Positions 1,828 to 32,602 of a stretch of DNA of 64,000 nt are shown piece after piece. The notes below the pieces were generated by a model, which worked only from the letters and a program-made list of their open reading frames with translations, had not been told where the DNA came from and did not search any database. How positions within the stretch are numbered: position 1 is the stretch's first letter; every line of letters begins with the position of its first letter. This DNA is from Roseburia sp. AF12-17LB. GTDB taxonomy: Bacteria > Bacillota > Clostridia > Lachnospirales > Lachnospiraceae. The stretch spans positions 146,248 through 210,247 of the forward strand of contig NZ_QUHR01000004.1 in assembly GCF_003479605.1 (NCBI RefSeq), given 5' to 3'. The position numbers and the translations under genes are program-made.

Positions 1828-2805
1828 ATGGATGGAAGATTTACGGATGAAGAGCTTGTCATAGCAAAGAGTGTTGACCTGTGTGCAGTTGCAGAAAGCC
1901 TTGGGTATACAGTAAAGAGGATTGGCAAATACCACACTTTAAAGGAGATGGATTCCATCCGTATCTATAACAGAAGCCATTGGTACAGATGGTCAAGGCA
2001 GTTTGACAAAGGCAACAATGGCGGCTCACAGATAGATTTCTTACGGGTATTTTGTGGAATGAGTGTAAAAGAGGCTGTGTTCTGGCTTCTGGACTTTGCA
2101 GGATACAGAAGAATCGAGAATCCTGTAAAGCAACCACTTGTTCATCAGGTATCACAGAAGCAGGCAGAGGAGAGAAAGCCGTTTGTCCTACCGGAACCGG
2201 CAGGAGATAATTCCTATCTTATTTCATATCTGAATCAGGAGAGAGGAATCAGCAGAGCAGTCATAGATCTTTTTTTAAAAGACGGACTGATTTATGAGAG
2301 CAGGCATTACCACAATGTTGTTTTCAAGGGAAATGATAAAAATGGAGTGACAAGATTTGCAAGTATGAGGGGCGTGTTTGATAAGCAGGGCAAGCCATTC
2401 AAGTGTGATGTCACAGGCAATGATAAAAACTATGGATTTAATGTAGTAAATGTTAACAGTACAGAGCTTGTAGTATTTGAGGCAGCAATCGACCTTATGA
2501 GTTATGTTGATATCTTCACGGATTATGAATCAAATAAGCTGGCACTTGGAATGCTTGCAGATGCCCCGCTTGAGACATTTCTTCGGGAACATCCGCAGAT
2601 TACTTCCATCCGGTTCTGCCTTGATGGAGATGAGCCGGGACGGAAGGCGGCAGCTGAACTTATGAGAAAGTATTATGAGCTTGGATATGAGGTAGAAGAC
2701 TGCCCGCCTCCAGCCGGATATAAGGATTACAACGAGTGGCTTGTAGCGGCAAAGCTTAATCTGAACAGGATGAATAAGCGAGCAGATGAACCAGTCAGGG
2801 CATGA
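1828..2805 (+). CDS. DUF3991/Toprim-domain primase-like protein
   Basis: A 325-residue protein with an N-terminal DUF3991-like region (SLGYTVKRIGKYHTLKEMDS, then WYRWSRQ and GGSQIDFLR) and a C-terminal Toprim-like domain. The Toprim signature appears as the acidic strand around ELVVFEAAIDLMSY and the later CLDGDEPGRKAA. This arrangement is typical of small primase-related proteins in Firmicutes ICEs. By family knowledge it may prime or process element DNA during transfer or replication; no activity is shown here. It starts with ATG 5 bases after the JAB gene, behind AAGGTGA. Its 3' end touches the hairpin array that follows. Confidence 0.8.
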   Translation: MDGRFTDEELVIAKSVDLCAVAESLGYTVKRIGKYHTLKEMDSIRIYNRSHWYRWSRQFDKGNNGGSQIDFLRVFCGMSVKEAVFWLLDFAGYRRIENPVKQPLVHQVSQKQAEERKPFVLPEPAGDNSYLISYLNQERGISRAVIDLFLKDGLIYESRHYHNVVFKGNDKNGVTRFASMRGVFDKQGKPFKCDVTGNDKNYGFNVVNVNSTELVVFEAAIDLMSYVDIFTDYESNKLALGMLADAPLETFLREHPQITSIRFCLDGDEPGRKAAAELMRKYYELGYEVEDCPPPAGYKDYNEWLVAAKLNLNRMNKRADEPVRA

Positions 2806-2825
2806 GAAACCGGATTTTGATGTGT

Positions 2826-3036
2826 GGGGGCAGAAAGTGCCCCCAAAACAGCAAAGTGGGGGCAGAAAGCGCCCCCAAAATGTCAAAGTGGGGGCAAAAA
2901 GTGCCCCCACAATTTGGACACGACAAAATCCGGACTGAAGTAAAAATAAAAGTGGGGGCAGAAAGCGCCCCCAAAATAACAAAATGGGGGCAGAAAGCGC
3001 CCCCAAAGTAGCAAAGTGGGGGCAAAAAGCGCCCCC
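2826..3036. repeat. Six GC-rich hairpin repeats in 32-bp register
   Basis: Six 19-bp copies of GGGGGCANAAAGYGCCCCC begin at 2826, 2858, 2890, 2954, 2986 and 3018, spaced 32, 32, 64, 32 and 32 bp; one slot at 2922 is empty. Each copy is a hairpin with 6-7 bp G/C arms, and the 13-bp spacers are also similar (AAAA..CAAAGT). A 10-bp inverted repeat, CCGGATTTTG (2810-2819) and CAAAATCCGG (2924-2933), brackets the first three units. About three helical turns per unit suggests an array bound by protein on one face of the DNA, such as an iteron, partition or transfer-control site. Confidence 0.9.
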
Positions 3037-3056
3037 ACTTTCATAAACAGAGGGTT

Positions 3057-3119
3057 TTAGGGAGATTTTCTCCCTAACTAGATGGCATTAGGACAGAGAT
3101 GTCTCTAATGCGTATCTAG
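3057..3119. other. Nested palindromes, candidate oriT or regulatory region
   Basis: Two consecutive inverted repeats lie in the non-coding gap before the mobilisation genes. The first has perfect 9-bp arms, TTAGGGAGA and TCTCCCTAA, around a TTT loop (3057-3077). The second is a long imperfect hairpin (3078-3119) with paired blocks CTAGAT/ATCTAG, GCATTAG/CTAATGC and GACA/TGTC. Relaxase-type origins of transfer often carry such palindromes beside mobC and the relaxase, here 0.6-0.9 kb downstream. A nick site cannot be seen by eye, and there is no T-run for a terminator. Confidence 0.45.
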
Positions 3120-3198
3120 CCGTAAACCTAAGAGATTCAGACAGGCGTGTGGGTGGAAGAGATATACAAAACACGGATAAGGGAGGTGCAGGAAAGCA

Positions 3199-3720
3199 AT
3201 GGATAAAGAACTTACAATAATCGCAGAACCAGAGGAACTTATTGCCTGGGCAGACACATTTGATATCTTACTAAACCCTTCGATAGAAGATGCTGCAATT
3301 CTGCTTAACTATATGGAAGGACATGATTATGCCATTGGCATAGATTCAGATGGGAAGATGTACAGGCAGGATGTAGCTGAGGAGAATGGTGAAATTGAAC
3401 CATACCCGATAGATGATGTTATAGATATTGTCTGTGAATGGAACTATGAACTGATACTTGATGCGGAAGCACACAGGAGTGATCCAAAGGATTTTAACGA
3501 CTATAACGAGTATCAGAGCAAGTATGAAAGTCTGAAAGCAGATGAAAAGAGACTGGACAGATTGTTTGATAAAACCTGTTATGGTAAGGAACTTATAGAA
3601 GTTGCCACAGAGCTTGCAGACAGGGTTATTGCCCAGCTGGGTAATAAAGAACTGGAAAAAGTTGCTGTAACAGTAGCAGAAGGAGTAAGAGAATACAGTA
3701 CGGGTAAGAGAGGAAGGTGA
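3199..3720 (+). CDS. Conserved hypothetical protein of the mobilisation region
   Basis: A 173-residue acidic soluble protein with no family I can name. It starts at ATG 3199 behind GGGAGGTG. The N-terminal two thirds are rich in Asp/Glu (for example DDVIDIVCEWNYELILDAEA); the last third is helical and ends with a basic tail (STGKRGR). No signal peptide, membrane span or cysteine motif is visible. It lies between the hairpin array and mobC, 4 bases before mobC, so it is probably translated from the same message. A role in relaxosome assembly or in regulating it would fit the position but is only inference. Confidence 0.7.
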   Translation: MDKELTIIAEPEELIAWADTFDILLNPSIEDAAILLNYMEGHDYAIGIDSDGKMYRQDVAEENGEIEPYPIDDVIDIVCEWNYELILDAEAHRSDPKDFNDYNEYQSKYESLKADEKRLDRLFDKTCYGKELIEVATELADRVIAQLGNKELEKVAVTVAEGVREYSTGKRGR

Positions 3721-4057: not shown

Positions 4058-5486
4058 GATACTTCACATGAAGGACAGCGGGAATTCTTTTCATGCAAGG
4101 CATTTGAAACGGGCACTGGATTATGTGATGAATCCTGAGAAAACGCAGAGAGGAAGACTTGTGGGAGCTGTTAACTGTCAGGCAGATATGGCTTTTGAAC
4201 AGATGATGGATACAAAGAAGCAGTTTGGAAAAACAGACAAGCGACAGGGGTATCACATCATTCTTTCCTTCAAAGAGGATGAGGTGGAACCGGACAGGGC
4301 TTTTGAGATAACACAGAAGTTTGTAGCAGAATATCTTGGCGATGCCTATGAAGCGGTATTTGTGGTTCATGATAATACAGACCATGTTCATTCACACATT
4401 GTATTTAACAGTGTAAGCTTTGTGGATGGGAAAAAGTATCGCTACGAGAAAGGTGACTGGGCAAAGTATATCCAGCCGATTACCAATAAGCTGTGTCAGG
4501 AGTATGGTCTTTCCATTATAGATGTGGAGGATGGCAGCAAAGAGAAACAGCACGAGAATTATAAGGATTGGAGCGAATATCGTGAAGGCAGCTTTGTGTG
4601 GGCAGATATGATAAAAAGAGATTTGGATGCCTGCATTTTACAGGCAAATGATTTCAGAGGATTTCTGGAACTGCTGTCGGAAAAAGGATATGAGGTCAAG
4701 CAGGGAAAGTATCTGGCAGTCAGACCACAGGGGATGACAAGATTCAGAAGATGTAAGACTCTTGGCGAGAATTATTCACAGGAAGCTATTGTGGAGCGTA
4801 TTGCTAAGGAAGATTTATCTTTTTACCAGTCACAGAATGAGGAAAAACAGGCAGCGATAGTAAAGTGCTATGTCAAAAGATACCGCAGGGCGAAGATGTC
4901 AGGCTTGCAGAAAAGATATTATGCAAAGCTTTACCGGATTGGGAAGCTGAAAAAGAAGCCATATAGTCAGGTATGGAAGTATAGGGATGATATCCGAAAG
5001 ATGCATAAGCTGCAGGAGCAGTATCTATTTCTGGTAAGGCATAAGATTGAGAGTGCGGAAGAACTTGTATCGGTACTTGATAATCTGACGGATAAGAAAA
5101 AAGAAGCATCAAAGGAAAAGAGTAAGACCTATAAGGCAAAGGAAAGATTTAAAGATATTTTTGACAAGGCTGAACAGATTCGGGAGCTTGATGATGCGGA
5201 ATCGTGTTATCAGAGTGGGGATACCTTCTTTGAAGATGAGCACAATGCATGGGAAAGGCTTAACACTGAACTTTTAGCACAGGGATACAGTGTGGAAGAG
5301 GTCGAGAGTCTTAGAAAGAAATATGAGAGCAAGTATGCACAGGACTGTAAGGCAGAACGGGCGGTATCAAAGGAACTTAGCCTTGGAAGATCAATATGGA
5401 AGGAACTTACTGTATCAGCTTCGGCAGAAGAGAAGCAGTATGACAAAGAAACAATAAGAGACAGAAAAGAACAGCCGGTACGTTAG
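4044..5486 (+). CDS. MOBP-type relaxase
   Basis: A 480-residue relaxase/mobilisation nuclease that would nick oriT and pilot the strand into the recipient. It starts at TTG 4044 inside the end of mobC. The N-terminal domain (about residues 1-150) carries a candidate catalytic tyrosine, Tyr27, in the ALDYVMNPEKT block. The metal-binding motif III, HDNTDHVHSH, lies at about residues 109-118. The rest is a Lys/Glu-rich helical region, likely partly coiled coil, as in other large MOBP proteins. MobC precedes it and a terminator overlaps its stop. No truncation is visible, so it is probably active. Confidence 0.92.
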   Translation: MAISKILHMKDSGNSFHARHLKRALDYVMNPEKTQRGRLVGAVNCQADMAFEQMMDTKKQFGKTDKRQGYHIILSFKEDEVEPDRAFEITQKFVAEYLGDAYEAVFVVHDNTDHVHSHIVFNSVSFVDGKKYRYEKGDWAKYIQPITNKLCQEYGLSIIDVEDGSKEKQHENYKDWSEYREGSFVWADMIKRDLDACILQANDFRGFLELLSEKGYEVKQGKYLAVRPQGMTRFRRCKTLGENYSQEAIVERIAKEDLSFYQSQNEEKQAAIVKCYVKRYRRAKMSGLQKRYYAKLYRIGKLKKKPYSQVWKYRDDIRKMHKLQEQYLFLVRHKIESAEELVSVLDNLTDKKKEASKEKSKTYKAKERFKDIFDKAEQIRELDDAESCYQSGDTFFEDEHNAWERLNTELLAQGYSVEEVESLRKKYESKYAQDCKAERAVSKELSLGRSIWKELTVSASAEEKQYDKETIRDRKEQPVR

Positions 5487-6709: not shown

Positions 6710-7114
6710 ATGAATTTAGCAGTAGTAAATGAAGCAGTAACAGAAATGAATGGTGTGGAGCATCAGTTTACAGAGGAAGAGAAAAACTTTGTTGTCCAGT
6801 TCGCATTCAGAAGTGGCAGCAAGGAAGACACGATTTCTCTTATTGAAGCTTTGGCACATTCAGCGGATAAGGCTGAGTCGGACGAGATTATGGTCACATA
6901 CAGGTCTAAATATGATATGAAGCCTGCATGGGTGGAACAGGTGGAAAACCTGCTTGTGGCACTTGAAATGTATCGTATCGAGGAGGAGAAAGCAATCAAT
7001 CATCTGGCAGATATTTTGACTGCTTATGGTATTGATGTATCAGCCGAGGAAATCCGTACTACAGAGACAGAAACACTTAAAACAACAGTCAGAGAGAAAG
7101 TGGAGGTGCGATAA
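6710..7114 (+). CDS. Small acidic ICE protein of unknown function
   Basis: A 134-residue soluble acidic protein with no recognised domain. It starts 9 bases after the coiled-coil gene, with GGAGG upstream, and its TAA overlaps the ATG of the PcfB-like gene by one base. It is predicted mostly helical, with a Glu-rich middle and a C-terminal ETETLKTTVREKVEVR tail. It lies directly before the coupling-protein adaptor and is translationally coupled to it. That suggests work at the relaxosome or coupling step, but nothing in the sequence proves it. Confidence 0.65.
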   Translation: MNLAVVNEAVTEMNGVEHQFTEEEKNFVVQFAFRSGSKEDTISLIEALAHSADKAESDEIMVTYRSKYDMKPAWVEQVENLLVALEMYRIEEEKAINHLADILTAYGIDVSAEEIRTTETETLKTTVREKVEVR

Positions 7115-8232
7115 TGGCAGAAGAGATTCAGGAAGCGGTGCAGATCATCCGTGTAGCTTATGATGGCATTGAGATTGCCATGAAGGTAGGAAGCGGCGGC
7201 ATTGCTGCCATGCAGAAGGCAATAGATTTCTTAAAAGGGATGCTTGATTATGAAAAGTCACTTGGCAAGACATCCATGAGAAAGCTGATCTTAAAAGGTG
7301 GCGATTTACAGGTGTTGCAGTTTAATACCGAAGATATGAAAAAGGTTGAAAAGATGGCAAAGAAGTATGGAATCCTGTATTCGGTACTTCCAGACTGTAA
7401 CAGGAAAGATGGACTGAGTGAGGTTATCTTCCATACTGAGGCAGTTCCCCGTGTGAATATGATGATACAGAAGCTCAAGTTTGGTAAGATTGCCACATTT
7501 GACGATTATCTGAAGAATGGAGATGAAAAATCCCTTGGCAAGCTGATGGATTTTTTGAAGAAACAGCAGGGAAACGAGAAAAGCCACACGATAGAAGGGG
7601 ATAGGGTTAATACCGCTATTGACGGACTGATCGAAAAGGTCGGAATGTTTGCAATGGAAAAGAAAGCTATCAGTGTGGATCAGGTCAAGGAGAATTTCAG
7701 TATCAATGGTGAGCAGGCTGAAAGTGTTATCAAACAGCTTGAGACAATCGGTGTGCTTGGCAGCAAGAATGAGGATGGCACCCATACAGTCATGATGGAC
7801 AAGGATGCATTTATCAACCGTGTCAGAGGCTATCAGGACCTTGCTGAGAGAATGAGGGCAGTTGCAGCATCAAAAAATGCGAACCTGTCAGATGTGACAA
7901 TCAGCAAGAAGCTGATTATCGAAGAAAATGACCATGCTGTTAAGACCAGAGTTCCCGGCACATGGGGAGAAGAGGCAAGATATGTATGGCTCCGTAAGGA
8001 AAACATCATGGAGATTCATGGTGGAAAGACAATGCTTACCTTCCTTGATTCAACCAAGGATTATAAGCTCTACGATGAGCAGAATCGTGTGGTGACAACC
8101 CAGAAAGGAACCGAGCTTTATACTCACTACGACAAGGTGGAGTCATCTGTCAGGGAGCGTTACGAGAAAGTGCAGAAGCAGCAGAAAAAGACCACACAGA
8201 AGAAAACTGTTACCACAAAGAAAGCGAGGTAG
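7114..8232 (+). CDS. PcfB-like (DUF3801) adaptor protein
   Basis: A 372-residue protein whose N-terminal ~150 residues match the PcfB/DUF3801 family. The visible blocks are AIDFLKGMLDYEK and FNTEDMKKVEKMAKKYGILY followed by an SVLPD-type turn. In the pCF10 plasmid system, PcfB acts with the VirD4-type protein PcfC at the inner membrane to recruit the relaxosome. This gene ends 6 bases before a VirD4 gene, which supports the same role here. The C-terminal half extends beyond the usual short PcfB and ends in a Lys/Gln/Thr-rich basic tail (QKQQKKTTQKKTVTTKKAR), a likely nucleic-acid or membrane-proximal contact. Confidence 0.82.
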   Translation: MAEEIQEAVQIIRVAYDGIEIAMKVGSGGIAAMQKAIDFLKGMLDYEKSLGKTSMRKLILKGGDLQVLQFNTEDMKKVEKMAKKYGILYSVLPDCNRKDGLSEVIFHTEAVPRVNMMIQKLKFGKIATFDDYLKNGDEKSLGKLMDFLKKQQGNEKSHTIEGDRVNTAIDGLIEKVGMFAMEKKAISVDQVKENFSINGEQAESVIKQLETIGVLGSKNEDGTHTVMMDKDAFINRVRGYQDLAERMRAVAASKNANLSDVTISKKLIIEENDHAVKTRVPGTWGEEARYVWLRKENIMEIHGGKTMLTFLDSTKDYKLYDEQNRVVTTQKGTELYTHYDKVESSVRERYEKVQKQQKKTTQKKTVTTKKAR

Positions 8233-13679: not shown

Positions 13680-16055
13680 ATGGGTTTATTTACAGACGGA
13701 TTTAAGTTATTAAAGAAGGCGAGTGAGCCTTTGTATAAGACACCTAAATCCATTCAGGAAACCATAGAGATTATGGCGGTGGCTGAAAACGGCATTTTTG
13801 AAGTGAGCAAAAATAAGTATTCCAAATGCTACCGCTTTCAGGACATCAATTACACGACAGCAACGGAGGATGAGCAGATCGGTATTTTCGAGAGGTATTG
13901 CAAGTTCCTAAATTCGCTGGACTGTAATTATAAGATTACGATCAACAATAAGAACAAAAACATGGATGAACTCCGTGACAAGGTTCTGATTGCTGAGAAA
14001 AACGATGGCTTCAATAATTATAGAAGAATCTACAATGACATCATTGAGGAGAAGATTATTGAGGGCAGACAGGGGATTGAGCAGGAGAGATACCTGACAA
14101 TCACGATTGAGAGAAAGAACTTCGAGGAGGCAAAGGCACAGTTTGCTACCCTTGAGGCAACGATACACAAGGCTTTCATTGAGCTTGGGGCAGAGATTGT
14201 TCCGCTTAATGGCAATGAGAGACTGAAAGTGCTCTATGATTATTATCATCTTGGAGATGAGGGCAGCTTTGATTTTGATATCAAAAAGGCAAAGAAGGTC
14301 GGAGCAGATTTTAGAAATGATCTGTGCAATGGGATGGTGAAATATTTCCCGGACCATTTTGAGGATGAGAGTAAATTCTGCAAGGCACTTTTTATCAAAA
14401 AGTATCCGAGCAGTTTGTCAGACAGATTTATCAATGAGATTACTTCCCTTCCGGTTCATTCCATCACGAGCATTGATGTGGTGCCTGTTCCTAAGGATTT
14501 GACTACAAAGGTGCTTCAGAAGAAATACCTTGGTATTGAGTCGGATATCATTAAGCAGCAGAGAGTCCGTAATAAGAATAACGACTTTTCTACGGAAATT
14601 TCATATGCCAAGAGAACGGAGAAAAAGGAGATTGAGGAAATCATGGATGATGTTCGTGAGAATGACCAGTGCCTTTTCTTCGTGGGAGTTACTATTATTC
14701 TTATGGCAGAGAGCAAAAAAGAGCTTGATAGCGTCTGTGAGACAGTGGAGACTATCGGAAAGCGTAACAGCTGTACGATTGATACACACTACTTAAAGCA
14801 GAGGGAGGCACTCAACACAGCGCTTCCGATTGGTGTAAGACAGGTGGAGACAATGCGTACCCTTCTTACCCAGTCACTTGCGGTGCTTATGCCATTCAAT
14901 GTGCAGGAATTAAATGACAGCACAGGGAACTATTATGGTATCAATCAGATCAGCAAGAATGTGAATATCGGTAACAGAAAGAAGCTGATAAACGGAAATG
15001 GCTTCGTTTTCGGAGTGCCGGGTTCCGGTAAATCCTTCTTCTGTAAGATGGAAATGGGCAGCGTATTCTTGTCGGGAGATGATGAGATAATCGTCATAGA
15101 TCCAATGAACGAATACTTTGATATTGCTGAGACTTATGGTGGAACAGTGGTAAATATGTCCACTTACACGGATAACTATGTGAATCCGCTGGAGATGGAT
15201 GTATGGAGCCTTGATCCGAATGATTCCAAGGGAATGGTAAGAGAAAAAGGCGAGTTTATGCTTGGTCTTTGTGAGCAGTGTATCGGAGACAGCTTAAATT
15301 CAAGACAGAAGTCAATCATTGACCGCTGCGTGAGAAAGCTGTATATCGACATTGCAAGAAGCAAAGAGAAGTATATCCCGGTGATGAGTGATTTTTACGA
15401 TATCCTTATGGCGCAGCCGGAGGAGGAAGCAAAGGACATTGCACTGTCACTAGAGCTTTTCGTAAATGGTTCGCTTAACATCTTCAATCACCAGACAAAT
15501 GTGGATGTGGATAACAGATTTACAGTATATGGCATCAGGGACTTGGGTACAGAACTTAGTCCTATCACAATGCTTGTTATGATGGAATCCATTCAGAACA
15601 GGATTGTTGAGAATGGCAAGAGAGGCAAGGCAACATGGCTCTATATTGATGAGTTCCATGTTCTGCTTAATTCCGAGTATTCTGCAAAATACTTGCAGCA
15701 GCTCTGGAAGAAGGTAAGAAAGCAGGGAGGTCTTTGTACCGGTATCACGCAGAATGTTGTCGATCTGTTGCAGAATTACACAGCAACCACAATGCTTGCA
15801 AACTCTGAGTTTGTGGCACTCTTGAAGCAGGCAAATACAGATAGTTCAAAGATGGCGGAGGTTATCGGGGTATCAGAGGCACAGCTTCGGTTCGTAACTA
15901 ATACCGCCTCTGGAATGGGACTTATTAAGTGTGGTTCGGTAGTAATTCCCTTTGATAATCAGATCAGCAAGGATACGGATTTGTACAGGCTGTATAATAC
16001 CAACATTCATGAGAAGATTGCGGAACAGAAGAAAAAAGAAGCAATGCTGCAGTGA
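13680..16055 (+). CDS. virB4: VirB4-type secretion ATPase
   Basis: A 791-residue cytoplasmic ATPase that powers the type IV channel. The N-terminal half is the long VirB4 region without ATPase motifs. Walker A is GVPGSGKSFF at about residue 446, and Walker B lies in WLYIDEFHVLL at about residue 653. The downstream conserved QLWKKVRKQGG and GITQNVVDLLQ blocks are also family-typical. It is a full-length member. ATG 13680 is preceded by AGCGAGG, and the gene follows the structured gap after PrgI. A hairpin lies 36 bases after the stop, where the operon is interrupted by a pseudogene and a peptidase gene. Confidence 0.95.
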   Translation: MGLFTDGFKLLKKASEPLYKTPKSIQETIEIMAVAENGIFEVSKNKYSKCYRFQDINYTTATEDEQIGIFERYCKFLNSLDCNYKITINNKNKNMDELRDKVLIAEKNDGFNNYRRIYNDIIEEKIIEGRQGIEQERYLTITIERKNFEEAKAQFATLEATIHKAFIELGAEIVPLNGNERLKVLYDYYHLGDEGSFDFDIKKAKKVGADFRNDLCNGMVKYFPDHFEDESKFCKALFIKKYPSSLSDRFINEITSLPVHSITSIDVVPVPKDLTTKVLQKKYLGIESDIIKQQRVRNKNNDFSTEISYAKRTEKKEIEEIMDDVRENDQCLFFVGVTIILMAESKKELDSVCETVETIGKRNSCTIDTHYLKQREALNTALPIGVRQVETMRTLLTQSLAVLMPFNVQELNDSTGNYYGINQISKNVNIGNRKKLINGNGFVFGVPGSGKSFFCKMEMGSVFLSGDDEIIVIDPMNEYFDIAETYGGTVVNMSTYTDNYVNPLEMDVWSLDPNDSKGMVREKGEFMLGLCEQCIGDSLNSRQKSIIDRCVRKLYIDIARSKEKYIPVMSDFYDILMAQPEEEAKDIALSLELFVNGSLNIFNHQTNVDVDNRFTVYGIRDLGTELSPITMLVMMESIQNRIVENGKRGKATWLYIDEFHVLLNSEYSAKYLQQLWKKVRKQGGLCTGITQNVVDLLQNYTATTMLANSEFVALLKQANTDSSKMAEVIGVSEAQLRFVTNTASGMGLIKCGSVVIPFDNQISKDTDLYRLYNTNIHEKIAEQKKKEAMLQ

Positions 16056-20714: not shown

Positions 20715-23700
20715 ATGGGCGTTGATATGAAGGTCAAAGCGATATACGATTCTGAAATTGGTAACATCACCAGAACAGATAAGAACTGGAAAGATGTTTT
20801 AAAGGTTGCAGGTCAGTTGTACCGCTATGAATTTGACAATATCGTTATGGTAACAGCTCAGAGATCTCCGGAGAGAAGCACACTTATGGCAGATTATGAT
20901 ACCTGGAAAAAGGTGGGAAGATATGTAAAGCGTGGTGCGAAAGGCTGTGCCATTTTCCCGTCAAGGGCACTGAATCCCCGTATGAGATATATCTTTGATA
21001 TCAGTGATACCGGAGGGAAGAATGTTAAGCTGACATGGGACCTTGAGGGAGAAAATCTTAAGGATTATGTGGATTTTCTTGTGTCAGAAGGTCAGATTGA
21101 GCAGTACGATAACAGCGACAGGGAGTCTCTAAAAAATATATTAAAACAGTTTACAGGAACAGATGTTTGGCTTATAATAAAAGAAGAGTTCGGAGACCGA
21201 ATGACCGAACTTATGCAGCTATCAGGTAGTGTGATAAAGGAAGAAAGTAAGAAACGCAATGGCTTACAGCAGGAAATGGACATGGAGCAGCTTGTATATG
21301 CAAGTGTCATGTATGCTGTAGGGACGAGATGCGGATTTGACTTATCTGTGCAAGAACAGGATTTTAGTCAGATCGTAAATATCAAAGACGAAGAGATCAT
21401 TTACCGTCTTGGTTCCATTGTATGCGATGTCTCCTGTAGTGTTCTTAGAGAATTTAGTCGTAACTTAAAGGCAATCGAGAGCGAAAGGAGAATTGGATAT
21501 GTTAGAAGAAATGACTTACAAGGAAGTGGACGGACTGCTTTATCCGCAGATAGAGATGCCGGACGAGACGGAGGATCTCACGAAGCTGGGCAAATACGGA
21601 AGGATGGCGATGAACTATCTAAAGGAGAACGAGCCGGCAAGATACAAGACGCTGATGAGATTCGGGAAGATGTACGAGAAGATGTCAGCGGTAGAGGAGG
21701 AAGCGAACCAGCTGTACGACCAGCTGGAGATGCAGTATCTGGCGAAGCACAAGCCACAGAATCCGTCATCGACAATGGAGATGTGGAAGATAAGAGAGCA
21801 GGCGAAGATGCAGGCAGAGGAAGTGGTACTGAATCAGATAGTGATGCGATTCCACTAGAATCAGATGATACAGAACTGAATAGGGAACTTGATGAAATCA
21901 ATTCATTGGGTGTTAGTAAGGAAGCCGAATATACACAGGCTTCCTTTTTTTTCGACCAGAATGGGCAGGCAAGCATTGGCACTATTCATACTGAGGACGA
22001 AAACAATAATCAGTTTATGCGTCAGTTCGAGCAGGACAGAAAAGCTGCATTAGCAGGTAAATACAATTACCTGAATCCCAAAAAGTCTGCAACAGTACCA
22101 AGTGAGTATATCAAACAGGTGCTTATGAGAGGTACAGGTTTTATCGGTGGCAAGGGCAGGGTATGCAAGATTTTTGAAACTGAGATTGATGCAGGAACCA
22201 GGGCAAAGCGTATCAAAGCAGAATATGGTCAGGGAGGTGCAGGCTGGCCGGTTGACGGACTGGGACTGCACGGATATGACACATTTCATGGGAATGGACT
22301 GCGTTTTCAGTGGCGAGATGAGGATGGAGAGGTTGAAGGATATGTTTCGTGGAAAGATATCGAAAAAGAGCTTGGTGTCCTTATTCTTACAGGGGAATAC
22401 CAGCCTGAGACACCTCGTATTGATGAGCTTGCGATGGACGGACTCCGTGAGGATGATGAGGTCATTGATGCCGAATACCGGGAAGTGGAACCGGAGGAGG
22501 CAGAATCAGAGATTGATGATTATGCAATACCGGATGAGCCGGAGAGCTATGCTTCTAACAGAGATTATGTAAGTGCAAAAGGCATGACACCACAGGAAAC
22601 TGCCGATGAAGACCGCATGGTAACACAGGCAGAATATGGTGCAGAGATAGAAGCTGAAACAACTGAAAAAGATCCATCAGAGCTTCAGTATATTACACCG
22701 ATTGATTATGCCAAGCGTATTGCAGAGCTTGATGAAGACCTGCGTGATGCGGCGGAGATTCTTGTAACAGATTGCAGCTGCTACACTCCGTTTAGGGCAT
22801 TCCTTATGGATGTGGTGCAGTCTGATTTTGCATTTATGCCCAATAAACTTGACCTTATCAGGGATATTGCATTAGGGACAGATAATGCAGAAAGAAAGGC
22901 ATATTCCAACAATAAGTATGGTCTTGTGGAGTACTCAATCAGAAGTGGATATGTGAAGATCAGCTATAAGAACAGGAATGGTGTGCGTAAGGAAGGTGCT
23001 CTCGACTGGCGTGAGTTATATGAGATTTTATCCTATATGGTAAAACAGCCATTTTACTGCGGAGAAGACCAGAAAAAGTATTATCAAGAGATAAAGCAGA
23101 AGGCTGACAGGGATAAGATGAATCCGGTCTATAAGAGATTCTTTGACATCGAGGATAGTGTAAAAGCTAATCGTCTTGAAACCAGGGAAAGAGCAATAGC
23201 GAATGGATGGGAAACCAAGATTGATGAGAATGGACATGTAGTTTCAGATGATGTGGTATCAGTATCTGTGGATGATATTCAGGCTGATACAGAATCACAG
23301 GAAACTGTAGATTTTACACCAAAGCAGGAACCAGTACAGCAAGTAGAAAGTCTTGAAAATGAGAAGAATGTTGCCGGGCAGACGAAGCACAACTTCCATT
23401 ACAATCTCTGGGAAATGGAAAAAGGCGGTGCCAAGACCAGATATCAGTGGAATATGGATGCAATTCGTACTTTAAAGCAGATTGAATCAGAAAACAGGCT
23501 TGCAACACCGGAGGAACAGAAAACCTTGTCGAAGTTTGTCGGATGGGGCGGACTGTCACAGGCATTTGACGAGGAAAACGCAGGCTGGAGCAAAGAGTAC
23601 AAAGAACTCAAAGAGATGTTATCGGATGAAGAGTATGCTGCAGCTAGGGCAACAGTAAACAATGCCTTTTATACTTCACCGGAGATTGCCATGTGCATGA

Positions 23701-26700
23701 ACTCGGCACTTGTCCAGTTTGGTTTCAGAGGCGGCAATGTATTAGAACCATCTATGGGTATCGGTAACTTCTTTGGGAGTATGCCGGCACCTATGCAGAG
23801 AAGTAAGCTGTATGGGGTGGAGCTTGACAGCATTTCGGGAAGAATTGCAAAGCAGCTTTATCAGAATGCCAATATCAGTATCACAGGATTTGAGAATACC
23901 ACATATCCGGATAACTTCTTTGATGTAGTTGTCGGAAATGTGCCATTTGGTGATTATAAGGTTTTTGATCCGAAGTACAACAAGTATAACTTCCGTATCC
24001 ACGATTATTTTCTGGCAAAAGCACTTGATCAGGTAAGACCGGGAGGCATGGTTGCGGTGATTACCACAAAGGGAACACTTGATAAGGCAAATCCTACTAT
24101 CCGAAAGTATCTGGCTGAAAGAGCAGAGCTTGTGGGAGCGATAAGACTTCCGAATACTGCATTTAAAGATAATGCAGGAACCGAAGTGACAGCAGATATC
24201 CTGTTTTTGCAGAAAAGGGAGAGAAAGATTGATATTGAGCCGGACTGGGTACACCTTGGTGTAACTGAGAATGGCATTGCAGTCAACTCTTATTTTGCAG
24301 AGCATCCGGAAATGATGCTTGGATCTATGGAATATGACACAAGGATTTACGGACAGGACAGCAGATACACAGTCTGCGTGAATGATGATGAGAACTTCAA
24401 TATTTATGAAGCATTAAACAAAGCTATCGGTAATATCAAAGCCCAGATGACAGATTTTGAGAGAGTGGCAGATGAGGCGGAGCAGACGGAGGAAGTTATC
24501 CCGGCTGATCCGGATGTGAGAAACTACACTTACACATTTTTTGAAGGAAAACTCTATTACAGGGAAAATTCCGAGATGGTAAGAAAAGAAGTATCACAGA
24601 CTGCCGAGGAGCGAATCAGAAGCCTTGATGAAATCAGACAGATAACAAGAGATCTGATTGATATCCAGATGGATGGCTGCAGCGAGGAGGAGCTTTCTGA
24701 TAAGCAGAGACTTCTTAATGTAAAATATGATGCCTTCGTAAAGCAGTATGGAGCCATTACTTCAAAAGCAAACAGAATAGCTTTCAGAGATGACAGCGAT
24801 TACCCACTTCTTTGCAGTCTTGAAGAAGTAAATGAAGACGGGGAGGTGAAAAAAGCGGATATGTTTTATAAGCAGACGATTAAGGCAAAGACTGTCATAG
24901 ACAGGGTTGAGACTGCTGTGGAAGCATTGAATGTATCCGTCAATGAATTTGGATATGTAAATCTTGCCTATATGCTCTCTATCTATGAGCCGGATATTAC
25001 TAATGTAAAGGAAGAACTTGCAGAAAAGTCCGGGCAGACAGCTGATGAGATAACATTTAGTGATGATGCTTTGGCAGAGCTTAGAAGGGCAGTTCTTGTG
25101 GAAGAGCTGGATGGATTGATTTTCCTAAATCCCGACCGCTACAACGAGAACAATCCCGACATCGGCTGGGAGACGGCAGACGAGTATCTTTCCGGCAATG
25201 TGAGAGACAAGCTTCGTGTAGCAAAGGCTATGGCAGCGGATACAGGCAATCCGCAGGCAGAAAAATTTGCAGGCAATGTGGCAGCACTTGAAAAGGTACA
25301 GCCGGAGTGGATTGAAGCCTCGGATATTGATGTAAAGATTGGCACGACATGGATTGAGCCGCTTGATTATGAGCAGTTTATCTATGAGCTTCTCAATACA
25401 CCAAGACGGGCAAGGGCAGTCAGAAGCCAGTTTTACAATACAGGCATTCAGGTACACTTAAATAAGATGAGCATGGAATGGTTCATCGAGAATAAAAGCA
25501 TGGATAAGCATTCAGTGGCGGCTACTAAGACCTATGGTACAAGCCGCATGGATGCTTATTCTATTTTTGAGGATACGCTGAATCTAAAGACAGTAACAGT
25601 CAGGGACAGGATTGATGACGGTGATGGCAGGTATCATTACGAAGTCAATAAGAATGAGACAATGCTTGCAAGGGAAAAGCAGAACATGATCAAGGAGAAG
25701 TTCAAGGAGTGGCTGTTTGCAGAGCCGGAGCGAAGACAGAAATATGTGGAGTATTACAACGAGACATTTAATAACATCCGCCTGCGTGAGTATGACGGAA
25801 GTCACTTACAGTTTCCGGGAATGAATCCGGCGATTGAGTTAAAGCCACACCAGAAAAATGCGGTGGCAAGAATTCTTCTTGGGGGAAATACTCTGCTGGC
25901 ACACTGTGTCGGTGCCGGAAAGTCATTTGAGATGATGGCTGCCTGCATGGAGCAGAAGAGACTTGGACTTGCCAATAAGACAATCATGGTTGTACCAAAG
26001 CCGCTTATCGGTCAGACGGCATCAGAGTTTTTAAGGCTTTATCCGTCAGCAAATATCTTAGTTGCCACGGAGCGTGATTTTGAAAAAAGCCGCAGAAAGC
26101 AGTTCGTATCAAGGATTGCAACTGGTGACTATGACTGTATCATCATGTCACACTCACAGTTTGAGAAAATCCCAATCTCCGCAGAGAGAAAGGAGCGAAT
26201 GCTTAACGAGCAGATTGATGAAATCAGCTATGCGATTGATGAGATGAAGGAGCGTAACGGAGAGCGATGGACTGTAAAGCAGATGGAAAGCCAGAAGAAA
26301 AAACTGGAGGAACAGCTGAAATCCTTGTCAGATGAGAGCAGGAAGGATGACCTTATTACCTTTGAGGAACTGGGTGTAGATTCTATTATGGTAGACGAAG
26401 CACATAATTTTAAGAACCTTGCGATTTTTTCCAAGATGAATAATGTGTCAGGTATCAGCAGTAGCGGAGCTAAGAAGTCAACGGATATGCAGCTTAAATG
26501 CCAGTATTTGTCTGAGATAAATGATGGCAGGGGTATTGTGTTTGCAACAGGTACACCAATATCCAATACCATGTGTGAGATGTATGTCATGCAGCTTTAC
26601 TTACAGAAAGCGGCACTTGAAGAGATGGGGATTTATCACTTTGATTCTTGGGCAGCAAACTTTGGTGAAGTGACAACAGCACTTGAGCTTACTGTAGAGG

Positions 26701-28367
26701 GAAGCGGATTTCGTTTTAAGAGCAGATTTAATAAGTTTACGAATCTGCCGGAGCTTATGAATATCTTCCGTGAGGTAGCAGATGTGCAGACCGCAGACAT
26801 GCTTGACCTTGATGTGCCAGCTCTCCGTGGCGGCAAGCCTATTATAGTGGAGTCGGAGCCTGACTGGTATGTGAAGCAGGTCATGGAAGACTTTGTTGTG
26901 AGGGCAGAGCGTATCAGAGGCGGTGGAGTTGATCCAAGCGTGGATAACTTTCTAAAGATTACCCATGAGGCAAGACTTCTTGGAACGGATGCCAGACTGA
27001 TTGATAAGGATGCGCCGAACAATCCGGATGGAAAACTCAATAAGGTAGCGGAGAATGTATGGAAAGAATATGAGAAAGGAAATGCTGATGGTCATATAGG
27101 CTGCCAGCTTATTTTTTCGGACATCGGCACACCGGGACCAGATAAGGACTTTACCATCTACGATTATCTGAAAGAAACACTGATCCAGTATGGTATTCCG
27201 GCAGATGAGATAGCTTTTATTCATGATGCCAAGACGGATGCACAAAGGGACGCACTTTTTAAGGAGATGAGGACAGGTAAAAAGAAGGTTCTTATCGGTT
27301 CAACGGACAAGTGTGGAACAGGTGTCAATGTGCAGACACACCTTGTTGCAATGCATCATGTGGATTGCCCTTGGAAGCCTTCTTCTATTGAACAGAGGGA
27401 AGGACGAGGCATACGACAGGGTAATGAAAATGAAGAGGTGGCAATCTACAGATATGTCACCAAAGGGACATTTGATGCATACAACTGGTCGCTTGTTGAA
27501 AATAAGCAGCGATTCATCAGTCAGGTCATGACAAGCAAGGCTGTAAGCCGAAGCTGTGAGGATATCGACGAGGCAACACTTTCCTATGCAGAGATTAAAG
27601 CGGTTGCCACAGGCAATCCTTTAATCAAGGAAAAGATGGAGATTGACAATGATGTCCAGAGATTAAAGCTCTTAAAGGCATCCTATGACAATCAGAGATA
27701 TGGCTTGCAGGATAACTTTATGATTAAGTATCCGAAGCTGATTAAGACAGCAACAGAAAAGCTTGCCAATGTAAGAGAGGATGTAAAGGCAAGGGATAAA
27801 GAGCTGATTGATAATCCGGAATTTGCCATTACCATAGGCAAAGTAACTTACACAGAGCGTGTGGATGGCGGAACGATGATGCTTGAAGCAATCAGTAAAT
27901 GTAAGACCGGAGAGACAACTGTAATCGGTAAATTCCACGGATTTGAGCTGCTTGTGGAAAAGAACTTCCTTGGCATCAATTATATGGTGCTTCGTGGAAA
28001 GACAGAGTATAAAGCAGAGCTTTCCACAAGTCCTGTCGGCAGCATGGTGAAGCTGGAAAACCTGTTCAATGGACTCCATGAGAACATTGATTTCTTTGAA
28101 AAGAAGATTGAGCAGTACCAGAATGACCTTGAAGCATCAAAGGCAGAGTATGACAAGCCATTTGCGTACAGCAAGGAACTGGAAGAAAAGCTGGCTAGGC
28201 AGTGTAAACTGAATGCCCAGCTTGACCTTGAGAACGCAAAGGCTGTGGATGCAGACCTGAGCGGACCGGAGGAAGAAAGAGAAGCTGATGACAGAATGGA
28301 ATCTGCAGCAATTGTAGCAGAGGATAAAGGTGCTTATCCAGCCGACAGAGAGGGCAGAACACGATAG
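20715..28367 (+). CDS. Giant DNA methylase/SNF2 helicase fusion protein
   Basis: A 2550-residue protein seen in many Firmicutes and Bacteroidetes ICEs. The order is: an ArdC-like N-terminal segment (residues ~1-110, with [16 protein letters not shown]), a low-complexity Gly/Asp/Arg-rich linker (~260-385), and further linker domains. Next comes an N6-adenine methylase-type core ([12 protein letters not shown] at ~1008 and GNVPFGDY at ~1072, where the usual NPPF is NVPF). An SNF2-type helicase follows, with GAGKS at ~1730, MVDEAHNF at ~1891 and [11 protein letters not shown] at ~2226. It may protect or remodel transferred DNA against host defence; that is inference from the domains. A second gene, TnpV-like, is encoded in another frame within its linker. 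Confidence 0.9.
21499..21858 (+). CDS. TnpV-like protein nested inside the helicase gene in another frame
   Basis: A 119-residue protein encoded in the +1 frame relative to the surrounding helicase gene. The sequence ([20 protein letters not shown] and later [13 protein letters not shown]) is that of the TnpV family, first described in Tn4451-type transposons. AAAGGAG lies 8 bases before ATG 21499, and the frame ends exactly before the linker region ends. Because the nested protein looks conserved and the host protein is low-complexity here, the nested frame is probably the one under selection. Its job in ICEs is unknown; regulation or excision has been suggested for TnpV relatives. Confidence 0.82.
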
Positions 28368-30682: not shown

Positions 30683-32602
30683 ATGAAAATAATTAACTTA
30701 GGCATTCTGGCTCACGTTGACGCAGGAAAGACAACATTAACGGAAAGTTTATTATATACCAGTGGTGCAATTGCAGAACTAGGGAGCGTAGATGAAGGCA
30801 CAACAAGGACAGATACAATGAATTTGGAGCGTCAAAGGGGAATCACTATCCAGACAGCAGTGACATCTTTTCAGTGGGAGGATGTAAAAGTCAACATTAT
30901 AGATACGCCAGGCCATATGGATTTTTTGGCGGAAGTATACCGTTCTTTATCCGTTTTAGACGGAGCAGTATTATTAGTTTCTGCAAAGGATGGCATACAG
31001 GCACAGACCCGTATACTGTTTCATGCACTACAGACAATGAAGATTCCGACAATCTTTTTCATCAATAAAATTGACCAAGAGGGGATTGATTTGCCAATGG
31101 TATATCGGGAAATGAAAGCAAAGCTTTCTTCGGAAATTATAGTGAAGCAAAAGGTTGGGCAGCATCCCCATATAAATGTAACGGACAATGACGATATGGA
31201 ACAGTGGGATGCGGTAATTATGGGAAACGATGAACTATTAGAGAAATATATGTCAGGGAAACCGTTTAAAATGTCAGAACTGGAACAGGAAGAAAACAGG
31301 AGATTCCAAAACGGAACGTTATTTCCCGTTTATCACGGAAGCGCTAAAAACAATCTGGGGATTCGGCAGCTTATAGAAGTGATTGCCAGTAAATTTTATT
31401 CATCAACGCCTGAAGGTCAATCTGAATTATGCGGGCAGGTTTTTAAGATTGAATATTCAGAGAAAAGGCGGCGTTTTGTTTATGTGCGTATATATAGCGG
31501 AACATTGCATTTGAGGGATGTTATTAGAATATCTGAAAAAGAGAAAATAAAAATCACAGAGATGTGTGTTCCGACAAACGGTGAATTATATCCATCCGAT
31601 ACAGCCTGCTCTGGTGATATTGTAATTTTACCAAATGATGTTTTGCAGCTAAACAGTATTTTGGGGAACGAAATGCTGTTGCCGCAGAGAAAATTTATTG
31701 AAAATCCTCTCCCTATGCTCCAAACAACGATTGCAGTAAAGAAACCTGAACAGCGGGAAATATTGCTTGGGGCACTTACAGAAATTTCAGATGGCGACCC
31801 TCTTTTAAAATATTATGTGGATACTACAACGCATGAGATTATACTTTCTTTTTTGGGGAATGTGCAGATGGAAGTCATTTGTGCCATCCTTGAGGAAAAA
31901 TATCATGTGGAGGCAGAAATAAAAGAGCCTACTGTTATATATATGGAAAGACCGCTTAGAAAAGCAGAATATACCATCCACATAGAAGTCCCGCCAAATC
32001 CTTTCTGGGCTTCTGTCGGGTTGTCCATAGAGCCGCTCCCTATTGGAAGCGGAGTGCAGTATGAAAGCAGAGTTTCACTTGGATATTTAAATCAATCGTT
32101 CCAAAATGCGGTTATGGAGGGGGTTCTTTATGGCTGCGAGCAGGGGCTGTATGGATGGAAAGTGACAGACTGTAAAATCTGTTTTGAATATGGATTGTAT
32201 TATAGTCCTGTAAGTACCCCCGCAGACTTTCGGCTGCTTTCCCCTATCGTATTGGAGCAGGCTTTAAAAAAAGCAGGGACAGAACTATTAGAGCCATATC
32301 TCCACTTTGAAATTTATGCACCGCAGGAATATCTCTCACGGGCGTATCATGATGCTCCAAGGTATTGTGCAGATATTGTAAGTACTCAGATAAAGAATGA
32401 CGAGGTCATTCTGAAAGGAGAAATCCCTGCTAGATGTATTCAAGAATACAGGAACGATTTAACTTATTTCACAAATGGGCAGGGAGTCTGCTTGACAGAG
32501 TTAAAAGGATACCAGCCAGCTATTGGTAAATTTATTTGCCAACCCCGCCGCCCGAATAGCCGTATAGATAAGGTTCGGCATATGTTCCACAAGTTAGCTT
32601 AA
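30683..32602 (+). CDS. tet(O): Ribosomal protection tetracycline resistance protein Tet(O)
   Basis: A 639-residue EF-G-like GTPase that removes tetracycline from the ribosome. The GTPase motifs are [14 protein letters not shown] and NKID near the N-terminus; the C-terminal half holds the EF-G-like domains that contact the 30S decoding site. Length and sequence throughout agree with Tet(O) as I remember it; stretches that distinguish Tet(W), such as its different 150-230 region, are absent. I see no sign of an O/W mosaic. It is preceded by a consensus promoter, leader peptide and attenuator, and followed by the KTR gene typical of tet cargo in gut Firmicutes. Confidence 0.95.

What the first reader, a model, noticed from the sequence alone, without database searches (positions are those of the whole stretch)
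2786..3050. Phased array of six GGGGGC hairpins with an empty slot
Seen directly: six 19-bp hairpins at exact 32-bp steps (one 64-bp step), about three helical turns, with similar 13-bp spacers and a 10-bp inverted repeat around the first three. Because 32 is not a multiple of 3, the peptides encoded across the array change frame in each unit, so selection is on DNA or RNA, not on protein. It sits between a primase-like gene and the mobilisation genes, so an iteron-type origin, a partition site, a transfer-control site or a cruciform array are all possible. I do not recognise it as a described system.
Basis: partly seen in the sequence, partly recalled or inferred. Interest (0 to 1): 0.75.

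Follow-up and report, generated by a model that had tools for sequence, protein, structure and literature searches.

The report
Partition-type binding array beside transfer origin
A row of repeated DNA sites next to the transfer start of a gut-bacterial mobile element looks like the docking platform for the element's own partition protein, and related elements carry their own private versions of it.

Summary
The six 32-bp-phased units are real (window 2824-3038). They are not primarily hairpins. Of 50 loci with the same adjacent oriT-like block, 43 carry repeats phased at 31-33 bp, against 0 of 50 coding controls. The repeat sequence differs between elements. In one large clade the paired half-sites are direct repeats that do not fold. 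What persists is helical phase: same-orientation spacings fit 10.7 bp per turn. The protein that best tracks the repeat sequence is a small ParR-type protein, ribbon-helix-helix-like but not proven so. It is encoded behind an actin-like ParM-type gene, 2.6-14 kb from the oriT block in 11 elements measured and outside this window. Among 40 pairs with at least 75% backbone identity, ParR identity predicts same versus different array with AUC 0.98-0.99; ten other proteins score 0.45-0.70. No repeat array precedes parM in 25 elements. Best reading: a parC-like, ParR-read centromere located away from parMR and beside oriT, coupling maintenance and transfer. Binding and function are inferred. A new variant of a known kind (type II partition).

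The parts
2824..2846 (+). Unit 1 (A-type): GTGGGGGCAGAAAGTGCCCCCAA, two half-sites 2825-2831 (+) and 2839-2845 (-)
2856..2878 (+). Unit 2 (A-type), half-sites 2857-2863 (+) and 2871-2877 (-)
2888..2910 (+). Unit 3 (B-type, longer palindrome GTGGGGGC..GCCCCCAC), end of first triad
2911..2951 (.). Gap between the two triads; start-to-start 64 bp here, 43 or 54 in some other elements (about whole helical turns)
2952..2974 (+). Unit 4 (A-type)
2984..3006 (+). Unit 5 (A-type, starts ATGGGGGC)
3016..3038 (+). Unit 6 (B-type), end of second triad, 13 bp before the oriT-like block
3052..3120 (+). Conserved oriT-like block: GGGTTTTAGGGAG..CTCCCTAAC hairpin, then CTAG-flanked hairpin ending GCGTATCTAGC (3110-3120, nic-like only by recalled resemblance to MOBP nic sites)
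   Evidence: same block found in 50 of 61 sources scanned; nic position not shown
1828..2805 (+).
   Evidence: AUC 0.52
3199..3720 (+). 173-aa ORF of unknown function; no ortholog found in L080, L085, L086, L088, L121
3725..4057 (+). NikA-like/MobC relaxosome accessory protein; conserved across array classes
   Evidence: AUC 0.45
4071..5486 (+). MobA/VirD2-type relaxase

Best explanation
The array is a parC-like centromere: about twelve ~7-bp half-sites, arranged as two triads of pairs in register with the DNA helix, read by the element's own ParR-type protein. In relatives that protein is encoded with an actin-like ParM-type protein several kb upstream; for this element the genes would lie outside the window. 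Shown here: the array, its helical phasing, its place beside an oriT-like block, its rapid sequence turnover, co-variation of the repeat sequence with ParR far above the ten other proteins tested, and absence of a repeat array in front of parM in 25 elements. Inferred: that ParR binds it, coats it as a higher-order complex and hands it to ParM filaments. The use would be to hold or segregate the excised, replicating ICE and, because the site abuts oriT, possibly to position the relaxosome for transfer. Hairpins arise only when half-site pairs happen to be inverted.
For: Architecture: 43 of 50 loci with the oriT block have at least two repeats phased at 31-33 bp, versus 0 of 50 coding controls and 9 of 250 resampled controls; spacings fit 10.7 bp per turn, mean cosine 0.72 over 32 elements. 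Partner: ParM-type gene in 36 of 37 genomes holding 40 of the 58 relaxase loci, Pfam ALP_N 3.9e-13, NCBIfam ParM 4.8e-10 but far below that model's cut-off. ParR: AUC 0.98 (whole) and 0.99 (residues 1-62) over 40 pairs with backbone identity >= 0.75; ten others 0.45-0.70; within-clade permutation reaches the observed value 2 of 5000 times for residues 1-62 and 5 of 5000 for the whole protein. Linkage alone does not explain it: genes between parR and the array (DUF5688 0.45, RadC 0.55, Toprim 0.52) and ParM beside ParR (0.64) track it little. Contrast: L070-L078, backbone 0.85, different array, ParR strand identity 0.33; L070-L080, backbone 0.81, same array, 0.89. Elements fetched by ParM alone: same-class ParR went with the same array (L169 GGGGGC; L180 and L181 GGTACC; L177 GTCAAC, on the contig of L111 already in hand). 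[quoted passage not shown] ParR_B sites are two 8-bp direct repeats 3 bp apart (PMC9426499); SrpR of SXT/R391 ICEs binds direct and inverted repeats upstream of srpM, in the srpM-mobI region where oriT also lies (PMC4489591).
Against: No binding or function is shown. The window's own parMR is not seen: its assembly is not held, so its ParR is inferred from relatives. The ParR fold is uncertain: no convincing Pfam family in 35 members and no NCBIfam family for the one tested, AF2 mean pLDDT 60.6 (residues 11-50 at 83-88: extended segment, then two helices, no strand assigned), no meaningful Foldseek match. Distance-correlation scans did not single ParR out: over 18 elements ORF173 and ORF394 (0.58 each) equalled ParR residues 1-62 (0.57); over 29 elements ParR 0.33 versus relaxase 0.30, with none of the 30 best 10-residue windows in ParR. 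ORF173 and ORF394 also beat most within-clade permutations (5 and 20 of 1000 reach them). With pairs down to 0.60 backbone identity the ParR advantage shrinks (0.87 whole, 0.92 residues 1-62, 0.86 for the backbone itself), partly because AT-rich words match (L093). L081 and L083 share 78% of the strand but not the array. Scattered one-mismatch half-sites, up to six per element, do occur before parM. Canonical parC sits directly upstream of parM; this one does not.
Confidence: 0.75

Rival explanations
1. Transfer enhancer: ParR and ParM act at this array not for partition but to recruit the relaxosome or coupling protein, like the overdrive site with VirC1/VirC2 in Agrobacterium.
For: The array abuts the oriT-like block rather than parM; in R1, ParM and ParR stimulate relaxase cleavage and ParM binds the coupling protein (PMC4949242 passages, where the VirC1/overdrive parallel is also drawn); in NAH7 a KorA-type partition protein also named ParR binds the oriT region and raises transfer (PMC12421886 passages).
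Against: No functional data here; an excised ICE could need partition regardless; srpMRC of SXT/R391 stabilises, and its deletion lowers transfer only about 4- to 14-fold (PMC4489591 passages); R1 ParR does not bind oriT (PMC4949242 passages).
Confidence: 0.3
2. Operator array: ParR (or another repressor) bound here controls the mobilisation operon that starts at 3199.
For: Position directly upstream of the mob genes; by recall, R1 parC also serves as the parMR operator.
Against: No sigma-70-like promoter match in 2700-3250 (a simple consensus scan); twelve phased half-sites over about 210 bp is more than a simple operator needs.
Confidence: 0.2
3. Hairpin or cruciform/RNA array: the stems themselves are the functional feature.
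For: Strong fold in this element (z -11.0 and -12.4); 14 of 37 arrays have mostly inverted pairs, mean z -7.4.
Against: 10 of 37 arrays show no excess folding on the + strand (z > -2), six of them in the GGTGTAG/GATATAG clade whose counted pairs are all direct; no Rfam match reached its gathering score.
Confidence: 0.04
4. Iteron-type replication origin read by a Rep protein.
For: Phased repeats; DUF3991/Toprim (primase-like) gene next door.
Against: Toprim identity does not track the repeat class (AUC 0.52); no Rep-type protein was recognised among the neighbours scanned or among those scanned at the element's left end in G001.
Confidence: 0.06
5. The 173-aa ORF, the 394-aa coiled-coil ORF or MobC is the reader.
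For: They are near; after ParR, ORF173 has the highest AUC (0.70 at backbone >= 0.75; 0.95), ORF394 0.62; both exceed most within-clade permutations (5 and 20 of 1000).
Against: No ORF173 ortholog in L080, L085, L086, L088, L121, and L080 keeps the GGGGGC array; MobC AUC 0.45 and up to 98% identical between GGTGTAG and GATATAG elements; all are well below ParR.
Confidence: 0.08

Closest known systems
parMRC type II partition of plasmids R1 and pSK41
   Same: Actin-like ParM gene followed by a small DNA-binding ParR gene; clustered iterons in two sets (two sets of five in R1, PMC4949242 passage); about 11-bp half-site step in the direct-repeat elements, as in R1's 11-bp repeats (PMC9426499 passage)
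   Different: The array is 2.6-14 kb from parR and beside oriT (11 elements); half-sites occur in direct or inverted pairs; no array before parM in 25 elements; ParR not recognised by Pfam or NCBIfam
srpMRC of SXT/R391 ICEs (PMC4489591, passages)
   Same: ICE-borne ParM/ParR; direct and inverted repeats; centromere in the same intergenic region as oriT
   Different: srpC lies directly upstream of srpM with four 13-bp repeats; here parMR is remote and there are about twelve half-sites phased at 32 bp
ParMRC families of Clostridium perfringens conjugative plasmids (PMC9426499, passages)
   Same: Many exclusive ParR/parC specificities among related conjugative elements; ParR_B reads two 8-bp direct repeats 3 bp apart (11-bp step)
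   Different: parC upstream of parM there; repeat sequence and spacing both differ between families there, whereas here the layout is largely kept while the sequence changes
overdrive with VirC1/VirC2 (VirC2 recalled; VirC1/overdrive named in PMC4949242 passages)
   Same: DNA site beside a transfer origin linked to a partition-like ATPase
   Different: VirC1 is ParA-like, not actin-like (recalled); no phased array known to me

Membership tests
Type II (ParMRC) partition system | Actin-like ParM ATPase in the element | tested here: met
   Pfam ALP_N 3.9e-13; in 36 of 37 genomes of relatives; for the window's own element only by inference
Type II (ParMRC) partition system | Small ParR gene directly downstream of parM | tested here: met
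   ORF of ParR type starting 1 nt before to 19 nt after the parM stop codon, or from an upstream start in L072 and L080 (24 of 25, 11 of 11); not found in L089
Type II (ParMRC) partition system | ParR has a ribbon-helix-helix DNA-binding fold | tested here: inconclusive
   AF2: extended N-terminus, helices 20-30 and 40-54, residues 11-50 at pLDDT 83-88, but mean 60.6, no strand assigned and no meaningful Foldseek match; weak PDB hit to an antitoxin (MazE4, E 0.098)
Type II (ParMRC) partition system | parC repeats directly upstream of parM | tested here: not met
   In 25 elements no repeat array in the 500 bp before parM (most repeated words are A/G- or A/T-rich, at most 6 copies) and no exact half-site upstream except one 6-bp match at -507 in L119; scattered one-mismatch matches, up to six per element
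Type II (ParMRC) partition system | Iterated repeats recognised by the cognate ParR | tested here: inconclusive
   Repeats present and co-vary with ParR (AUC 0.98-0.99); binding not testable here
Type II (ParMRC) partition system | Stabilises a plasmid | not testable with these tools
   needs experiment
Iteron-type replication origin | Repeats read by a Rep initiator of the element | tested here: inconclusive
   Neighbouring primase-like gene does not track repeats; no Rep recognised among the genes scanned, but not every gene of the element was scanned
Structured RNA/cruciform array | Stem pairing conserved across relatives | tested here: not met
   10 of 37 arrays at z > -2 on the + strand; direct-repeat pairs in a whole clade
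oriT accessory binding array | Fixed position beside oriT | tested here: met
   50 of 61 sources have the oriT-like block; 43 of those 50 have phased repeats in the 250 bp 5' of it; that the block is an oriT is itself inferred

The most novel reading that the evidence does not exclude
A type II partition system has been split and rewired in these ICEs: the centromere has moved to oriT, so that ParR and an actin-like filament act on the relaxosome itself. Each lineage keeps the helical scaffold while switching half-site sequence and even half-site orientation together with its ParR, giving a family of some 20 or more mutually exclusive addresses that let several related ICEs share one cell.
Probability: 0.35. 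Interest if true: 0.8.

Novelty: new variant of a known kind. Interest (0 to 1): 0.6.

Why it matters
It gives a natural series of ParR/array pairs with the backbone held nearly constant, so rules of ribbon-type DNA recognition, incompatibility between ICEs and the link between partition and conjugation become directly testable. It also warns that a striking hairpin array in one genome can be an accident of half-site orientation.

Tried and rejected
Rfam: six sub-threshold matches, none at its gathering score. Pattern scan of viral contigs: 55 stretches; the contexts printed look like chance GC-rich matches, none this array. MobC, DUF3801 (weak FtsK_gamma match; considered as a KOPS-like reader), T4CP, Toprim, relaxase, ORF394 and ORF173 as readers: tested and outperformed by ParR. 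Columns that separate the GGTGTAG from the GATATAG class: at most 2 per gene in nine window-type genes (ORF134 had too few). Distance-correlation and 10-residue sliding-window scans over 18 and 29 elements were confounded by clade structure and did not single out ParR. Half-sites in front of parM: no exact match except one 6-bp match in L119; scattered one-mismatch matches. ParR of the GATAGC class in plasmid records: none. ParM in plasmid records: 23, all below 60% identity. AF2 plus Foldseek/VIA on ParR: no meaningful match. Pfam and PHROGs on 35 ParR members, NCBIfam on one: nothing convincing (PHROG 876 'transcriptional repressor' for one member, 3.6e-4). Two patterns in viral contigs: none. 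Helical-period fit: no shuffled control was run for it. Literature: no paper describing this array appeared in the listings; the library holds open-licence PMC papers only and lists were capped. Papers seen as passages: PMC4489591, PMC9426499, PMC12421886, PMC4949242, PMC12904643; as outline and abstract: PMC12614216; the rest as listings.

Rows dropped before counts: near-duplicates L067, L076, L108, L071, L074, L095 (and L169, L176 of the second set) and L089 (no ParR found behind parM). The ParM search was given 40 of the 58 relaxase loci. Of 20 regions fetched, 11 held both ParR and array; 9 of these entered the test. The other nine: five end at or near a contig end or were cut short (L168, L172, L175, L179, L185), L170 gave no ParR behind parM, and L184, L186 and L187 showed no oriT block. 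Array classes were assigned by eye; searches used a fixed k-mer rule.

Full report
What is there. The window carries a conjugative element: DUF5688, RadC and DUF3991/Toprim genes, then the array, an oriT-like block, a 173-aa ORF, MobC/NikA, a MobA/VirD2-type relaxase, two ORFs without a convincing family, DUF3801 and a VirD4-type coupling protein. The reported array is confirmed: six units at 2824-3038 with steps 32, 32, 64, 32, 32. Twelve of the thirteen TGGGGGC words of the window lie in it. Units 1, 2, 4 and 5 end in CCCCCAA; units 3 and 6 in CCCCCAC. It is therefore two copies of the same triad (A, A, B) rather than six units with one missing.

Relatives. A relaxase search of GTDB genomes gave 58 loci, mostly Lachnospiraceae or other Clostridia by record title. 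A block resembling GGGTTTTAGGGG..CCCCTAAC..hairpin..GCGTATCTGGC was found in 50 of the 61 sources scanned: the window, L064, L065 and the 58 loci. The misses were L065 (degraded copy), L069, L079 and L113 (the contig starts close by), L104 (array present by another scan), and L114-L118 and L120 (no array found). In the 250 bp 5' of the block, 43 of 50 loci have at least two same-orientation repeats 31-33 bp apart, 39 of 50 at least four. The controls were 0 of 50 stretches of upstream DNA and 9 of 250 resampled sequences with at least two.

Sequence turns over, layout stays. Close relatives keep GGGGGC, as does L080 at 66% relaxase identity. Other relatives at about 70% and below have GTGGTGG, GAACTT, GATTGT, GCTAGC, GAGTGA, GTCAACT, GGTATGA, AAGTAGG, AAGTAGT, GATATAG, GGTGTAG, GGGTGCA, GGATTAA and others. 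A k-mer rule gave 30 different top 7-mers in the 50 loci, some of them different words of one class. Enterococcus and Lactococcus plasmids carry related arrays; the one read (L064) has a GATAGC version with the same 3+3 layout. Same-orientation spacings in 32 elements fit a period of 10.7 bp: mean cosine 0.72, falling to 0.41 at 10.5, 0.35 at 10.9 and below zero at 10.3 and 11.1 (no shuffled control). The gap between triads is 43, 54 or 64 bp start to start in the elements read off, i.e. about whole turns.

Hairpins are incidental. In the GGTGTAG/GATATAG elements each pair is a direct repeat with 11-bp step, and these arrays fold no better than shuffles. Overall 10 of 37 arrays have z > -2 on the + strand; 14 have mostly inverted pairs (mean z -7.4), 13 mostly direct (mean z -2.1), 10 neither. 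A DNA-binding protein with short half-sites explains both arrangements; a hairpin function does not.

In the nearest genome held (G001, Butyribacter intestini by its shared contig with L070) the left part of the element encodes an actin-like protein (Pfam ALP_N 3.9e-13) followed by a 149-aa protein without any Pfam match. The actin-like gene is present in 36 of 37 genomes reached through 40 of the 58 relaxase loci. For 36 elements it lies on the same contig as the array, judged by equal contig length (25, 11). The next gene is a ParR-type protein with a variable N-terminal segment that holds an invariant Arg, followed by an invariant His (35 sequences). I first compared array classes assigned by eye over 29 elements: ParR identity separated same from different arrays with AUC 1.00 over 108 pairs (15 same), against 0.57-0.95 for ten other proteins, ORF173 being the 0.95. 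I then fetched 20 more regions chosen by ParM alone; 11 had both ParR and array, though two of these contigs (L176, L177) were already represented. With a fixed k-mer rule on 38 elements, 40 pairs with backbone identity >= 0.75 (18 same, 22 different) gave AUC 0.98 for ParR, 0.99 for its first 62 residues and 0.91 for its C-terminal part. The others were ORF173 0.70, ParM 0.64, ORF394 0.62, coupling protein 0.58, relaxase 0.57, RadC 0.55, DUF3801 0.53, Toprim 0.52, MobC 0.45 and DUF5688 0.45 (some genes are missing in some pairs). Permuting ParR within nine clades reached the observed value 2 of 5000 times for residues 1-62 and 5 of 5000 for the whole protein; the same test gave 5 of 1000 for ORF173, 20 for ORF394, 68 for ParM, 132 for Toprim, 188 for MobC, 218 for relaxase, 372 for DUF3801 and 410 for the coupling protein. 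Pairs within a clade are not independent, and the 18 same pairs come from six clades. At backbone >= 0.60 (153 pairs, 23 same) the contrast is weaker: ParR 0.87, residues 1-62 0.92, strand 0.95, backbone itself 0.86.

Linkage is not the likely explanation: the genes lying between parR and the array, including the Toprim gene 18 bp from the array, track the repeat class poorly, and so does ParM beside ParR. Single-step changes are suggestive: GGTGTAG elements have segment xF[TS]IRFS and GATATAG elements GF[PL][VL]RFS; AAGTAGG goes with VTVRLSY and AAGTAGT with VTLRLLY. A counter-example is L081/L083, with 78% of the segment shared and different arrays.

No local centromere seen. The 500 bp in front of parM in 25 elements has no repeated word comparable to the array and no exact copy of the element's half-site, except one 6-bp match at -507 in L119; scattered one-mismatch matches occur. 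From parR end to oriT block the distance is 2.6-14.0 kb in 11 elements.

How it probably works. By analogy with R1 and pSK41 (passages of PMC4949242 and PMC9426499), ParR dimers would coat the phased half-sites into one curved assembly that engages a ParM filament. Because the array abuts oriT, the same complex could hold the relaxosome. SXT/R391 ICEs show that an ICE can carry such a system and that its centromere can share an intergenic region with oriT (PMC4489591 passages). Whether partition or transfer is the main use cannot be told from sequence.

Limits. The window's own ParR is not seen: its assembly is not held. The ParR fold is not established: AF2 mean pLDDT 60.6, with residues 11-50 at 83-88 (extended segment and two helices) and no meaningful Foldseek match. 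Distance-correlation scans did not single ParR out. That the conserved block is an oriT is inferred from its place beside MobC and relaxase genes. No binding was measured.

Noticed in passing
window 30683-32602: TetM/TetW/TetO/TetS-family ribosomal protection gene inside or next to the element, above its NCBIfam cut-off.
   Followed up: partly
L064 6001-6293 (Enterococcus faecium plasmid NZ_CP079928.1) and 7 other Enterococcus/Lactococcus plasmid records: Array of this family on plasmids; in L064 mob genes follow it and fexA and optrA are annotated nearby. No GATAGC-class ParR and no ParM at 60% identity or above in the plasmid collection, so the array may be an orphan; in L064 the right half-sites of four units have drifted.
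   Followed up: partly
L188 (MT836647.1, labelled Bacteriophage sp.) about 13815-13925: The record reads as a chromosomal fragment with carbamoyl-phosphate synthase-like genes (by eye); it holds a single unit of the array next to a degraded oriT block.
   Followed up: partly
L081, L086, L088 (one organism); L093/L094; L098/L099; L180/L181: Co-resident elements carry different array classes in three genomes; one genome holds two elements of the same class (GGTACC). Fits an incompatibility role but too few to test.
   Followed up: no
L096, L097, L104: Arrays with three half-sites per unit (L096, L097) or extra units (L104): copy number can expand while the 11-bp step is kept.
   Followed up: no
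L076: A four-unit array with steps 32, 32, 64, as if two units were lost.
   Followed up: no
P0110, P0116, P0184, P0188: Public records name the ParR-type protein 'ATP-binding protein', which looks like a wrong name passed on.
   Followed up: no
window 7114-8232: DUF3801 protein has a weak FtsK_gamma-like match (8.4e-5, below cut-off), directly before the coupling protein gene.
   Followed up: partly
window 20715-28367: A 2550-aa protein whose C-terminal part weakly matches helicase-containing defence families, below their cut-offs.
   Followed up: no
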